64,000 nucleotides of DNA from Nitratiruptor sp. YY08-10 (lineage in GTDB: Bacteria; Campylobacterota; Campylobacteria; Campylobacterales; Nitratiruptoraceae), in assembly GCF_016629565.1 (NCBI RefSeq), contig NZ_AP023057.1:1674001-1738000 (forward strand), written 5' to 3'. Made by a program: the position numbers and the translations under genes. The notes beneath the pieces are model-generated. The model was given only the letters and a program-made list of their open reading frames with translations. It was not told the DNA's origin and did no database searches. This document shows, one piece after another, positions 21,436 through 26,500 of this stretch (the first letter of the stretch is position 1; each line of letters begins with the position of its first letter).

Positions 21436-24400
21436 TCACTTGAAAAACTTTAACCGCTTTTTCATTTGCAGATAGAGATCTTGTATTACTTTTTGATAAG
21501 AGATTTCACCTTGTTCTATTTGATCCATCAAAGCCTCAAGCTCTTTTGTATAATGTTCATTGACAAATGTATACACTTCAGGATTTTTCCTGAGCTCTTC
21601 ATACACTTCTTGTCCCAATTTGGTTGGATATAAAATACCTTGCCGCTGAACAATATAATGACGCTCTTGAAGTTTTTGAATCGTTATAGCATAGGTAGAC
21701 GGTCTTCCTATTCCTCGCTCTTTCATCAGTCGAATAACATCGGCATAGCCGTATCTTGGAACTTTGGATCTGGTTAAAAGCTCTTTTTGTACAGCGTACC
21801 TGCCCTCTTGCAATTGGTGTAACTGCACAGGAAGGATCAAGTCGATACCGTGTTCAACTATGTCATCATAAAAACGGATCGTGGTTTTTTGGTCAAATGC
21901 CTCTACTTGAGCCGCAATCTCCTCTACTTTTGCACTTTTCATCTGTGAAGCGATAAAGGTACGAAAAATAAGATCGTATAGCTTCACGTGCTCTTGGGTC
22001 AAAGAGCTGTTTTGCAGCTGTAAAAACTGCTCAAGTTCCTGTGCGTCCATAGCCTTTGTAGGCCTGATCGCCTCATGAGCACCTCCGGCTTTACTATGAC
22101 TTCTTGGCACAAAATAGTTTTCGCCAAAATGGGTTTGGATATACTCTTTTGCTATAGCGATACCCACACTGCTAATTCTCGTTGAATCGGTTCTGTGATA
22201 GGTGATAAATCCAGATTCAAACAGATCTTGTGCCAGCTGCATCGTCTTTTGTGGAGAAAAATGCAGCTCTTTTGAAGCTGCATAGAGCATCGCATCGGTA
22301 GTAAAAGGTGTTTTGAAAAGCTCTTTTGTTTCTTTTTGAATAAACCGAATTTCAACTTCATGAAGTTTTTCATAAAACTCTTTTGCTGTTTGTTTCTCAT
22401 CAAAAACAAACTCTGCCACTACATCATCAACAAAAGTCTGCACAACAAAAATCTTCTCTTTTGCTTCATTGTCTCTCAGTACAATCCATTCAAGCACGGC
22501 ACTCTGTACCCGTCCGGCACTGAGCCAGCTCTTTTGAAATCTCTTTTGCAGCATCTGTGAGAGACTAAAGCCTATCCAACGATCGGCAATTCGACGAACC
22601 AACTGGGCTTTGACCAGATCTTCATCAAACTCCCTCGGATGACTCAGAGCCTCATCAAAAGCCCTTTTGGTCACTTCATGAAATTCGGCTCTTTGAACTT
22701 TTTTGTTGTAAGGCTTCACCAAAAGCTGCAAGTCGTAGCTGATTTTCTCTCCTTCCACATCCGGATCGGTAGCGATAAAAAGATCTTGTACCTCAACTCC
22801 CAATCTTCGCAAAGCCCCGATAATATCTTTTTTGTCTTCATCTATCGGCTCAAAAAGAGGGATAAAACGTTCCTCATGCAAAATGCCATATATCCCTTCT
22901 TGCTTTGTTAGATCCACAACATGCCCTTTGGATGCAGCGATAGAGAGGATTTTCCCCTCTTTTGCTACTTCGTAAACTCGAACACCACCAAGGTCTCGCA
23001 CCATAGGCTTTCCATAAAAGTTTGCAATAGTTCTTGCTTTATTTGGGGATTCTACGATGACTAAAGAGGTTGTAAAAAACTCCTTCTGTTCATGTAGTTC
23101 TCCCTGCATCGCTAAAGCAATTTTTTGTCGATCTTCATCAATGATTTGTAAAATCGCTTTTAGATCCACATCTTTTGCATCTTTAAAAACAATCTCCTCA
23201 TTAAACCATCGCACCTTTTTTTGCAAACTTACAAAGGCTTTTTGATTATCGACTAAAAGATAGCTAAGCCCCTTTGAAAGTCCTCCTACATAGAGCCTGC
23301 TTGTTCTACCACTTGCTTGGATATAACCTGTGACATCAGCGGTGACAAGTTTAAAATGATCATCTTCTTTCACAATGGCCACATCGGGAGTTTTATTGAT
23401 TTTTTCGATCTGCTTATCATCTAAAAGATTTGTTATCTCATGGTATATCGTTTCAACTTTTGCCTTTGCCTTTTGGCTTAGTTTCTCATAAGGGATACGC
23501 AACACCCTTTTTAAATAATTGAGATACTGTATAAATTGTTCAAAATTTGGATGGTTTTTGAAAAATTGTAATAGCGATACCAAAAAAAAGTATAAAGAGG
23601 TATGTTTTGTAATATCTAACGTAAACTCCAGTTTTGGCACACCCACAAACAACGCATACCGAATGACATCTGGCATGTCGATTCCACGGGCTAATGGATT
23701 TCGATAGCTGGCAAATCCAACTAAAACCTGGGCATCTCCTTTTCTAAAAGCCTCTTCATCAAACTCCTCATAACTTTGCGCTTTGATCCCTTTTTGCTCC
23801 AAAAAGGCCAAAAACTCCTGTAGCCGCTCTTTTGTCTCATTTCCTGGCAAAAAAAGAAGCCCGCCTGTGCCAAGCTCGTTGACAAGCTCTACACTTCGCT
23901 GCCAAAGATCCTTTGGCTCTTCATACACATCCTCTACATTTCTCACCGTAATGGATGGTCGGCTCACCTCAAATCCCAAAAGCTCCCGAAAGAGCCCTAC
24001 TCGCCTGCTTCTTGGATTTGCCGTTGCACTAGAGACTATGAGTTTTGCTTTTGCATGAGAGCGAATAAAACGCATCTTTGCTTGCCACTGCTCAAACTCT
24101 TCGTAAGTGAGACTACCTTTTATTTTTAAATCGATAAAGCACATCGCCTCATCGATATCTTCTTGACTAAAACCCAAAAGAAGCATCACCTTATCGATAT
24201 GTCTGGCACTCTTTAAGATACTGTCCACATCATCGATAAACACAAAACCAAACGCTTTTGGGATGGATTCAAAATTTTTGTAAAAAAAAGCGGTTGTGGT
24301 TACTAATATCTGAAACTCACCCGCACGAATTTTTGCTTTTGTTTCATCTTTTTTCTTTTTAGAAAATGAAGAGTCATAAAAAAGAGGCTCAACCCCAAGT

Positions 24401-24798
24401 TGCCTTAACCTTTCCACTGCCTGATTTACCAGAAGCTGTGTCGGGAAAAGGAGATAACTTTTTTGGTCTAAAAATGCAGCAAGCGATAATCCAAATGTTG
24501 TTTTTCCAACACCTGTAGGTGCAAGTAGAGCAAAAGAGTGTCCAAGGAAAAATCGTTTTGCCCAGCTTTTTTGGATTTGACGAAGACTAAATCCATTTTT
24601 TTCTTTGAAAAACGTTTCAAACAAAGCACTTCTTTGCTCTACTGCACAAATGGCTAAAAAATCGCCCTCTTGCAGTATATCGCACGGATCACCCTCTTTT
24701 TGCATACAGCGCTTGCACATCAATCCTTTGCCAAGGCGCTCGCTACAAATATCACCCCCACAGTTGGGGCAAAGCCCCTTGTAGACAAGTTCTATCAC
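21436..24798 (-). CDS. rgy: Reverse gyrase
   Basis: An 1120-residue fusion of an SF2 helicase and a type IA topoisomerase, which introduces positive supercoils. The N-terminal zinc finger uses C10, C13, C28 and C31. Walker A is APTGVGKT (93-100), the DEAD-like box is FIDDVDSIL, and motif VI is ASGRTSRL. The topoisomerase part has Toprim motifs VIVESPNKARTIANFYGKP and IATDPDVEGEK. The catalytic tyrosine is in GFITYHRTDSTRIS (around residue 870). The second zinc finger common in the Toprim region of archaeal enzymes is not visible. The GTG start overlaps the preceding TGA by 4 nt, which couples it to the near-KaiC gene. It marks a thermophile. Confidence 0.97.
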   Translation of the reverse strand: MIELVYKGLCPNCGGDICSERLGKGLMCKRCMQKEGDPCDILQEGDFLAICAVEQRSALFETFFKEKNGFSLRQIQKSWAKRFFLGHSFALLAPTGVGKTTFGLSLAAFLDQKSYLLFPTQLLVNQAVERLRQLGVEPLFYDSSFSKKKKDETKAKIRAGEFQILVTTTAFFYKNFESIPKAFGFVFIDDVDSILKSARHIDKVMLLLGFSQEDIDEAMCFIDLKIKGSLTYEEFEQWQAKMRFIRSHAKAKLIVSSATANPRSRRVGLFRELLGFEVSRPSITVRNVEDVYEEPKDLWQRSVELVNELGTGGLLFLPGNETKERLQEFLAFLEQKGIKAQSYEEFDEEAFRKGDAQVLVGFASYRNPLARGIDMPDVIRYALFVGVPKLEFTLDITKHTSLYFFLVSLLQFFKNHPNFEQFIQYLNYLKRVLRIPYEKLSQKAKAKVETIYHEITNLLDDKQIEKINKTPDVAIVKEDDHFKLVTADVTGYIQASGRTSRLYVGGLSKGLSYLLVDNQKAFVSLQKKVRWFNEEIVFKDAKDVDLKAILQIIDEDRQKIALAMQGELHEQKEFFTTSLVIVESPNKARTIANFYGKPMVRDLGGVRVYEVAKEGKILSIAASKGHVVDLTKQEGIYGILHEERFIPLFEPIDEDKKDIIGALRRLGVEVQDLFIATDPDVEGEKISYDLQLLVKPYNKKVQRAEFHEVTKRAFDEALSHPREFDEDLVKAQLVRRIADRWIGFSLSQMLQKRFQKSWLSAGRVQSAVLEWIVLRDNEAKEKIFVVQTFVDDVVAEFVFDEKQTAKEFYEKLHEVEIRFIQKETKELFKTPFTTDAMLYAASKELHFSPQKTMQLAQDLFESGFITYHRTDSTRISSVGIAIAKEYIQTHFGENYFVPRSHSKAGGAHEAIRPTKAMDAQELEQFLQLQNSSLTQEHVKLYDLIFRTFIASQMKSAKVEEIAAQVEAFDQKTTIRFYDDIVEHGIDLILPVQLHQLQEGRYAVQKELLTRSKVPRYGYADVIRLMKERGIGRPSTYAITIQKLQERHYIVQRQGILYPTKLGQEVYEELRKNPEVYTFVNEHYTKELEALMDQIEQGEISYQKVIQDLYLQMKKRLKFFK

Positions 24799-25460
24799 GC
24801 TTGACCTTGACTTTGCAAATACTCTTTTATGGCATGAAGCATTTCAGCAGGCGTTTTGATAGGATAAGCAATATTTTTTGCCACTTCACTTCCATCAATA
24901 CCTTTGATCTGAACACCGGCAAGCCTGTTTTCAAGTTCTTTGCTATCTACAACAGGGTAACTGATACCTTTGCTTTTTTTAAGCACAAGATAGGCCCATG
25001 GACTTTCACAACTTGCCGCTTTGAGTGATTCAGCCGCCACTGCGTGACAAAAATCAAGCATCGTTTGTGAATCTTGCCCCTCTTTGACTAGCTTGTAGGC
25101 TAACTTTGCCACACCACCGGCTGTATGAACTTTGAGCTCTTTTTTCTCCTCTTCACTGAGTTCTTCAAGATGCTCGATTTTATACATCGCTTGATCCGGA
25201 TCAGCTCTTAAGATATTTCTCACTGTATTTCTTGTAAGACCCACATACTCCGCAATCTCATCTTCAGGTTTGAGATACTCCTCCCGTAAAACAATAGCAA
25301 ATGCCGCACGAGCCAGACTCGGTAGCCATGTGAGTGTACGAAATTCTGCTAATTTTTTTAGACCGCCCAAAAGATCGATGGCTTTGAAAAAGACACGCTC
25401 AACCAATCTATCCAACTCTTTCTCATCAATATTAAATCCACTCGCTGTCAAAATAATCAT
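24795..25460 (-). CDS. Near-KaiC HTH-containing regulatory protein
   Basis: A 221-residue cytoplasmic protein. Residues ~10-80 (DRLVERVFFKAIDLLGGLKKLAEFRTLTWLPSLARAAFAIVLREEYLKPEDEIAEYVGLTRNTVRNILRAD) resemble the probable regulatory domain found next to KaiC-like ATPases in archaea (TIGR03879-type). EIAEYVGLTRNTVRNIL reads as a helix-turn-helix. The C-terminal half contains no named domain that I recognise. A strong AAGGAGG precedes ATG 25460. It lies between the KaiC-type ATPase gene and reverse gyrase, overlapping the latter by 4 nt. The function is unknown; DNA-linked regulation is inferred from the HTH and neighbours. Confidence 0.75.
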   Translation of the reverse strand: MIILTASGFNIDEKELDRLVERVFFKAIDLLGGLKKLAEFRTLTWLPSLARAAFAIVLREEYLKPEDEIAEYVGLTRNTVRNILRADPDQAMYKIEHLEELSEEEKKELKVHTAGGVAKLAYKLVKEGQDSQTMLDFCHAVAAESLKAASCESPWAYLVLKKSKGISYPVVDSKELENRLAGVQIKGIDGSEVAKNIAYPIKTPAEMLHAIKEYLQSQGQA

Positions 25461-25521
25461 TGTTCTCCTCCTTTATTGTAGTGACTCATTCAATCAAAAT
25501 CGAGCCTATTTAGTTCCTTTC

Positions 25522-26403
25522 TTATTCTCCCAATGGTCCTAAAATTCTAACAAGTCCTGTTTCAGTGATCTCCATAAAATGCGTTTTCGTATCATGTCCG
25601 CTCATTCGACATCCGTCAATTCGAAACAGGCGCACAAGATCACCCAATTTTGCCTTATACATCCTAGCGGCATATTGGCTGGCAATCAGCTCCTTTGCCA
25701 CTACCATCGTTCCATCAACGATATGGCCAACTGCATATCCACCTGCCGCTTCACTGCTCAGCTCTTCATGACCACTTCTTTTTTGCGAGATCAAAATGGC
25801 TGTTTGGTACCACTTTTTCAAGAAGTTATAGACTCGTCTGACAATTGCTCGTGCCATCATCTCTTTATTTTCAAAAAGACCTGTTACGGAGTCAATCACC
25901 GTATAGTTGATTTTAAACTCTTTGATGGCATAGGCAAGGGTTGCCAAAAGATCAGGGATATTTTCTCTCAGTTTCGAATGACTTGCCGCATCGATCAAAA
26001 TGATATTGTCTTCAAAATCCTCAAACTTATATCCCATGGCAAGGGCTCTGTATTTGATAGAAGAGATCACGAAATTTGCAGGGGTCTCCACTGTAATGAA
26101 AGCAACTTTCTCTCCCTTCCTAGCCTGCTCTACAGCAAACTGCTCCACCATTAAACTTTTTCCCGTATCATTTACGCCTGTTAGATTAAAAACACTATAT
26201 TTTGGAATACCTCCAAGTGGAACCTGCTTCAATTTTCCTTTTTCTTCTTTGAGGGTGAAAAAAAGATCATCCAACCCTTCAATTCCTGTTGGCACTCCTG
26301 TAATTTCCGGAGCTTTTTGCAGCGCTTCGGAGCCTTTGAAAATACTCTCTTTAACAACTTCTGGTTCATGATAGTAGCTTGGGTAGCTATTTGTTTCGGC
26401 CAT
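25522..26403 (-). CDS. KaiC-domain / RecA-superfamily ATPase
   Basis: A 293-residue RecA-fold ATPase. Walker A is GVNDTGKS (residues 76-83), Walker B is in NYTVIDSVTG, and the KaiC-like opening TGVPTGIEGLDDLF precedes it. VAFITVETPANF and ILISQKRSGHEELSSEAAGGYAVGHIVDGTMVV complete the core. It is close to the archaeal KaiC family that pairs with the near-KaiC protein (TIGR03880-type). CCAAGGAGG precedes ATG 26403. It is the first gene of a three-gene operon ending in reverse gyrase. It lacks the duplicated domain and phosphorylation region of cyanobacterial KaiC, so it is not a clock protein. Confidence 0.85.
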   Translation of the reverse strand: MAETNSYPSYYHEPEVVKESIFKGSEALQKAPEITGVPTGIEGLDDLFFTLKEEKGKLKQVPLGGIPKYSVFNLTGVNDTGKSLMVEQFAVEQARKGEKVAFITVETPANFVISSIKYRALAMGYKFEDFEDNIILIDAASHSKLRENIPDLLATLAYAIKEFKINYTVIDSVTGLFENKEMMARAIVRRVYNFLKKWYQTAILISQKRSGHEELSSEAAGGYAVGHIVDGTMVVAKELIASQYAARMYKAKLGDLVRLFRIDGCRMSGHDTKTHFMEITETGLVRILGPLGE

Positions 26404-26500
26404 AGCGACCTCCTTGGGTTTTAGACAATTATAACGAAAAGCAGTTCAAAGAAATGCAACCAAACTTGCACTATAATATCTTAAAAAAATTAAAGAGTAT

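What the first reader, a model, noticed from the sequence alone, without database searches (positions are those of the whole stretch)
21436..26403. Operon of KaiC-type ATPase, near-KaiC HTH protein and reverse gyrase
Three minus-strand genes run together, and the GTG start of reverse gyrase overlaps the stop of the near-KaiC gene by 4 nt. The near-KaiC/KaiC pair resembles archaeal families that regularly occur side by side (TIGR03879/TIGR03880 types). Coupled translation with reverse gyrase suggests the ATPase and HTH protein act with, or control, positive supercoiling. This may be a thermophily module acquired from archaea or hyperthermophilic bacteria. I know of no described functional link.
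Basis: partly seen in the sequence, partly recalled or inferred. Interest (0 to 1): 0.72.

Follow-up and report, generated by a model that had tools for sequence, protein, structure and literature searches.

The report
KaiC-type ATPase operon with reverse gyrase
In heat-loving vent bacteria, the gene for reverse gyrase (the enzyme that overwinds DNA in heat lovers) sits in one tightly coupled operon with a clock-protein-like ATPase and a small DNA-binding protein, and this grouping has arisen more than once in unrelated lineages, which points to an undescribed partner or control system for reverse gyrase.

Summary
Three minus-strand genes encode a KaiC-family ATPase (TIGR03878), a near-KaiC HTH protein (TIGR03879) and a complete reverse gyrase (TIGR01054). 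The last two overlap by 4 nt (GTGA).

The neighbourhood is not unique. The same trio occurs in all seven Nitratiruptor-family genomes that have the genes, and in about ten Persephonella-type Aquificota. One Hydrogenothermaceae genome has reverse gyrase divergent from the pair, beside one shared upstream region. Six Thermotogota genomes have rgy directly followed by a different KaiC family (TIGR03877) and then near-KaiC: another order, with 1- or 4-nt overlaps where read. The linked rgy genes fall in separate parts of the rgy tree.

Presence also tracks rgy. In 148 Thermodesulfobacteriota genomes the same 8 have both genes; in Campylobacterota KaiC occurs only with rgy (11 of 14 rgy genomes). 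Exceptions exist: rgy without the pair (e.g. Nautilia profundicola) and the pair without rgy.

Best reading: the pair is a heat-response ATPase/DNA-binding regulatory module repeatedly coupled to reverse gyrase. Whether it regulates rgy or works beside it is untested. No held paper describes the link.

The parts
25522..26403 (-). KaiC-family ATPase gene (thermo_KaiC_2, TIGR03878), first gene of the operon; Walker A GVNDTGKS, catalytic Glu E106, Walker B ..VIDS
24795..25460 (-). near-KaiC protein (TIGR03879 domain at residues 29-128; HTH about residues 66-84; conserved C-terminal half without a family)
21436..24798 (-). reverse gyrase (zf_Rg, DEAD helicase, Toprim and topoisomerase IA domains all present)
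24795..24798 (-). GTGA junction: stop of near-KaiC overlaps the start of rgy by 4 nt (translational coupling inferred)
24805..24808 (-). AAGG Shine-Dalgarno-like sequence of rgy, inside near-KaiC
26428..26433 (-). putative -10 element TATAAT of the operon promoter; a TATAAT at a similar distance before KaiC is seen across most of the Nitratiruptor family
26456..26469 (-). small inverted repeat GCAA-N6-TTGC upstream of the -10 (putative operator, weak; same repeat in two sister genomes, a different TTAAAG-N3-CTTTAA repeat at about the same place in others)
   Evidence: inference
26409..26415 (-). Shine-Dalgarno AAGGAGG of KaiC

Best explanation
A compact three-gene heat-response operon. The KaiC-type ATPase and the near-KaiC helix-turn-helix protein form one ATP-gated DNA-binding module (inferred from their pairing and often overlapping genes). 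It is made from the same transcript as reverse gyrase and most likely adjusts how much reverse gyrase is made, or where it acts, when temperature rises: ATP binding or hydrolysis by KaiC switches the DNA-binding state of near-KaiC, which then controls its own operon (rgy included) and probably other heat genes. Shown: the genes, their tight and repeated linkage to rgy, and their phyletic association with rgy. Inferred: co-transcription, complex formation, and direction of control.
For: Same trio in all 7 Nitratiruptor-family genomes that have the genes, with absence of all three together in G052. Same order in Persephonella-type Aquificota: L068-L072 read directly, and 10 of 131 Aquificota genomes by KaiC-rgy spacing. 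Divergent rgy/KaiC with a short shared upstream region in L084/G304, whose rgy is of a different clade. Thermotogota: rgy followed at once by a second KaiC family (TIGR03877) and then TIGR03879 in L241-L246, with 1- or 4-nt overlaps where read. rgy tree: a single clade of Nitratiruptor plus Persephonella linked rgy is rejected, p-AU 0.0002; KaiC tree borderline, p-AU 0.055. Co-occurrence: Thermodesulfobacteriota 8/8 identical genomes of 148; Campylobacterota 11 of 14 rgy genomes and 0 of 284 others; Thermotogota, either KaiC family, 27 of 31 rgy+ versus 4 of 60 rgy-. Heat link: P. furiosus KaiC-domain PF1931 and predicted regulator PF1932 are heat-shock-induced Phr targets (PMC10746257); their TIGR family was not checked.
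Against: Pair without detected rgy: G590, G606, G654 and G663. L060 keeps an intact pair after its rgy has decayed. Thermophily is a shared confounder, and the Fisher tests ignore phylogeny. The near-KaiC model has no significant fold match.
Confidence: 0.5

Rival explanations
1. Thermophily cassette: independent heat-survival genes (rgy, and a KaiC pair with an unrelated target) are clustered because they are useful at the same time, are co-expressed and are transferred together; the pair does not act on rgy.
For: Linkage is broken in most lineages, where the pair sits beside aroF/pyk, SMC, GAPDH and other genes. L060 looks like transfer of the whole trio into a deltaproteobacterium followed by rgy decay with the pair kept intact. 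rgy spreads horizontally in bacteria (PMC6878951), and the rgy and KaiC trees here do not follow phyla.
Against: Repeated linkage to rgy specifically, in two gene orders and with two different KaiC families; rgy is the commonest neighbour of the pair in 80 genome-contig loci.
Confidence: 0.3
2. Direct partner: the KaiC ATPase and near-KaiC act on DNA together with reverse gyrase as a loader or remodeller (recombinase-like RecA-fold ATPase plus HTH DNA adaptor) during heat damage repair.
For: RecA-fold ATPase with Walker A/B and one of the two KaiC catalytic Glu residues conserved; near-KaiC has a central HTH; pair next to SMC in six Thermodesulfobacteriota-type loci.
Against: Rgy alone supercoils DNA in vitro (established knowledge); several organisms have rgy without the pair.
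Confidence: 0.15
3. Chance adjacency with no meaning.
For: Adjacency is lineage-restricted in each phylum.
Against: At least three separate arrangements in three phyla, conserved short overlaps, and flanks otherwise shuffled.
Confidence: 0.03
4. A circadian-type oscillator controlling supercoiling, as KaiC does in cyanobacteria.
For: KaiC superfamily membership only.
Against: Single-domain protein, distant from clock KaiC (30 bits to TIGR02655, cut-off 546); second catalytic Glu replaced by Thr; no kaiA or kaiB in the operon.
Confidence: 0.02

Closest known systems
thermo_KaiC_2 (TIGR03878) with near_KaiC_dom (TIGR03879)
   Same: Both proteins score far over the curated cut-offs and are adjacent, as in most other bacteria surveyed
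   Different: Joined by a short overlap to reverse gyrase; the family entries name no target
thermo_KaiC_1 (TIGR03877, PH0284 type, PDB 2DR3) with TIGR03879 in Thermotogota
   Same: Same kind of pair, also joined to rgy in six genomes
   Different: Different KaiC subfamily; order is rgy-KaiC-near; near-KaiC is short (about 140 aa, versus 221 aa here)
Reverse gyrase (TIGR01054) of Nautiliaceae, e.g. Nautilia profundicola
   Same: Same enzyme in the same order of bacteria, heat-induced (PMC2628731)
   Different: Not linked to the pair; N. profundicola has no KaiC pair at all
PF1931/PF1932 of Pyrococcus furiosus (Phr heat-shock regulon)
   Same: A KaiC-domain protein and a predicted regulator with adjacent numbers, both strongly heat-induced (PMC10746257)
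   Different: No link to rgy stated; TIGR family not verified here
Cyanobacterial clock KaiC
   Same: RecA-fold ATPase superfamily (about 50 bits to the best solved KaiC)
   Different: Single domain, only one catalytic Glu kept, no KaiA/KaiB; not a clock protein by any test here

Membership tests
TIGR03878 thermo_KaiC_2 | whole-protein score over 232.2 bits | tested here: met
   448.4 bits
TIGR03878 thermo_KaiC_2 | intact Walker A and Walker B | tested here: met
   GVNDTGKS and VIDS, conserved in the 10-sequence alignment
TIGR03879 near_KaiC_dom | score over 65.1 bits and gene beside a KaiC gene | tested here: met
   130.9 bits; adjacent gene
   53.7 bits
Reverse gyrase TIGR01054 | full-length score plus zinc finger, helicase, Toprim and topoisomerase IA domains | tested here: met
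   1188 bits, residues 1-1113; all four Pfam domains
Reverse gyrase TIGR01054 | ATP-dependent positive supercoiling | not testable with these tools
   needs biochemistry
Circadian KaiC (TIGR02655) | duplicated CI-CII domains and score over 546 bits | tested here: not met
   single domain, 30.4 bits
Operon (co-transcribed unit) | one transcript | not testable with these tools
   inferred from overlap, strand and promoter position
DNA-binding regulator | HTH that binds DNA | tested here: inconclusive
   central helices with weak HTH and sigma-region-4 hits; no significant fold match

The most novel reading that the evidence does not exclude
KaiC/near-KaiC is a dedicated, widespread control or partner system of reverse gyrase: it senses heat through its ATPase state and sets positive supercoiling in bacteria, and has been physically joined to rgy independently at least three times.
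Probability: 0.35. Interest if true: 0.85.

Novelty: new variant of a known kind. Interest (0 to 1): 0.62.

Why it matters
Reverse gyrase is the hallmark enzyme of hyperthermophiles, yet how cells control it and what works with it are little known. The near-KaiC family has no known function. Repeated joining of the two into one operon gives the orphan family a concrete target to test, and gives reverse gyrase a candidate regulator or partner present in many thermophilic bacteria. It could be tested in Thermotoga or Thermococcales.

Tried and rejected
1) Trio unique to this genome: rejected. 2) Nitratiruptor and Persephonella linked copies as one exclusive clade: rejected on the rgy tree (p-AU 0.0002), borderline on KaiC (p-AU 0.055); the second KaiC clade test (Nitratiruptor with Nautiliaceae) did not finish. 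3) Fold of near-KaiC by structure search: model mean pLDDT 84 but no PDB match below E 0.001; weak hits to ParB and sigma region 4 only. 4) PDB sequence relatives of near-KaiC: none. 5) Plasmid carriage: the only plasmid relatives of the pair are on the Thermomicrobium roseum megaplasmid, without rgy in the 13 kb stretch read; the rest of the plasmid and the chromosome were not searched for rgy, and the genome paper does not mention gyrase. 6) Prior report: full-text search found one paper with both 'reverse gyrase' and 'KaiC', which does not link them; the 2017 KaiC-like ATPase review is not held and the 2003 paper on genomic determinants of hyperthermophily was seen only as a citation, so earlier notice of the phyletic link cannot be excluded. 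7) Archaeal survey: no archaeal genome could be used as a search centre.
Full report
OBSERVATION. The three genes are present as described. KaiC (25522-26403, minus) is TIGR03878 with 448 bits against a cut-off of 232; near-KaiC (24795-25460) is TIGR03879 with 131 bits against 65; reverse gyrase (21436-24798) scores 1188 bits against 472 and keeps its zinc finger, helicase, Toprim and topoisomerase domains. The rgy GTG overlaps the near-KaiC TGA (GTGA, 24798-24795), with AAGG a few nt upstream. A TATAAT and a consensus Shine-Dalgarno precede KaiC, and a TATAAT is seen at a similar place in most other members of the family. The unit is closed on both sides: upp is divergent upstream and a GGDEF/EAL gene is convergent downstream.

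NEIGHBOURHOOD WITHIN CAMPYLOBACTEROTA. Of 298 genomes, TIGR03878 is found over its cut-off in 11 and rgy in 14, the 11 being a subset; TIGR03879 is in the same 11 of the 15 genomes tested. All seven carriers in the window's own family have the trio; flanking genes differ between them. One genome of that family (G052) lacks all three. In Nautiliaceae the pair is unlinked, between a DAHP-synthase-like gene and pyruvate kinase. Nautilia profundicola (identified as G038 by its genome length of 1,676,444 bp) has rgy but no pair, and Campbell et al. report over 100-fold heat induction of its rgy (PMC2628731), so the pair is not required for heat induction in that species.

NEIGHBOURHOOD BEYOND. Eighty loci from genome contigs showed the trio in further Nitratiruptor-type MAGs and in Persephonella-type Aquificota L068-L072. 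In a draw of 131 Aquificota, ten genomes have KaiC and rgy at trio spacing (near-KaiC between them was read directly only for loci in hand). L084 has rgy divergent from KaiC with a short shared upstream region. In Thermotogota a search for TIGR03878 also caught a second KaiC; in six genomes it starts where rgy stops. The loci show rgy, then KaiC, then near-KaiC; the two KaiC genes tested from these loci are TIGR03877 with 416-429 bits and the two near-KaiC genes are TIGR03879. The overlap is ATGA in L243 and TAATG in L244. Thus both gene orders exist, with two KaiC subfamilies.

INDEPENDENCE. On the rgy tree the linked genes lie in four places: Nitratiruptor, Persephonella (nested among Hydrogenothermaceae with unlinked rgy), L084 (with Thermodesulfobacterium-type rgy) and a Thermotogota clade. 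An exclusive clade of the Nitratiruptor and Persephonella copies is rejected for rgy (p-AU 0.0002) and borderline for KaiC (0.055). One ancient linkage with several losses remains possible for those two; the L084 and Thermotogota cases differ in arrangement and rgy lineage, and the Thermotogota case in KaiC family too.

CO-OCCURRENCE. Thermodesulfobacteriota: 8 genomes with KaiC, 8 with rgy, the same 8 of 148. Thermotogota: KaiC of either family in 27 of 31 rgy genomes and in 4 of 60 others, never both families in one genome (the second family was scored by its weaker hits to the TIGR03878 model and three members were confirmed as TIGR03877). Aquificota: both 105, rgy only 14, KaiC only 5, neither 7; 8 of the 14 do have near-KaiC, so part of the gap is probably assembly incompleteness. 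Twenty of 20 carriers of TIGR03878 reached through named loci have rgy. Fisher p-values range from 5e-4 to 1e-17 for these four comparisons but ignore phylogeny and the shared factor of growth temperature.

DIVERGING EVIDENCE. L060, a contig labelled Deltaproteobacteria whose other genes do not look campylobacterial, carries an intact Nitratiruptor-type pair followed by only the first 39 codons of rgy. This looks like transfer of the whole trio followed by rgy decay with the pair kept, so the pair can be retained without its adjacent rgy (another rgy elsewhere in that genome was not tested, and a chimeric contig cannot be excluded).

MECHANISM. KaiC keeps Walker A, Walker B and the first of two KaiC catalytic glutamates (E106; the second is Thr). 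Near-KaiC is helical with a central HTH and strongly conserved residues around it, without a fold match. The P. furiosus PF1931/PF1932 genes, a KaiC-domain protein and a predicted regulator, are Phr heat-shock targets (PMC10746257). The simplest model is an ATP-gated DNA-binding regulator of the heat response that is joined to rgy where tight co-expression pays. Complex formation and the direction of control are inference. In six Thermodesulfobacteriota-type loci the gene after the pair is SMC, which also hints at chromosome architecture.

CONCLUSION. A real, recurrent operon; a known protein pair in a partnership with reverse gyrase that none of the held papers describes. The functional link is likely; its mechanism is open.

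Noticed in passing
L241-L246 (Thermotogota): rgy directly followed by a TIGR03877 KaiC and a short near-KaiC, with 1- or 4-nt overlaps where read: the trio in another phylum, another order and another KaiC family.
   Followed up: yes
L060:10001-11750: Intact KaiC/near-KaiC pair followed by a decayed rgy (39 N-terminal codons left) on a deltaproteobacterium-labelled contig: apparent transfer of the trio, then rgy loss.
   Followed up: partly
L092, L099, L101, L105, L109, L111: In Thermodesulfobacteriota-type loci the gene right after the KaiC pair is SMC (chromosome condensation); only L109 was checked against Pfam.
   Followed up: partly
L084:6432-10850: rgy of Thermodesulfobacterium type is divergent from KaiC, sharing one short upstream region.
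   Followed up: yes
L240 (Thermomicrobium roseum megaplasmid): TIGR03878/TIGR03879 pair with a 127-aa near-KaiC, next to a FAD-dependent thymidylate synthase; no rgy in the stretch read.
   Followed up: partly
G257:C1:1386427-1387200: Second TIGR03878 copy in a Nitratiruptor-family genome, away from the trio; no second TIGR03879 was found in that genome.
   Followed up: no
window 26456-26469: Small inverted repeat GCAA-N6-TTGC just upstream of the KaiC -10; other family members have TTAAAG-N3-CTTTAA at a similar place: possible operator.
   Followed up: partly
L078, L090, L104, L106: Contigs with a thermophile KaiC filed under Bacteroidales, Omnitrophota and Dojkabacteria; some may be misbinned vent contigs.
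   Followed up: no
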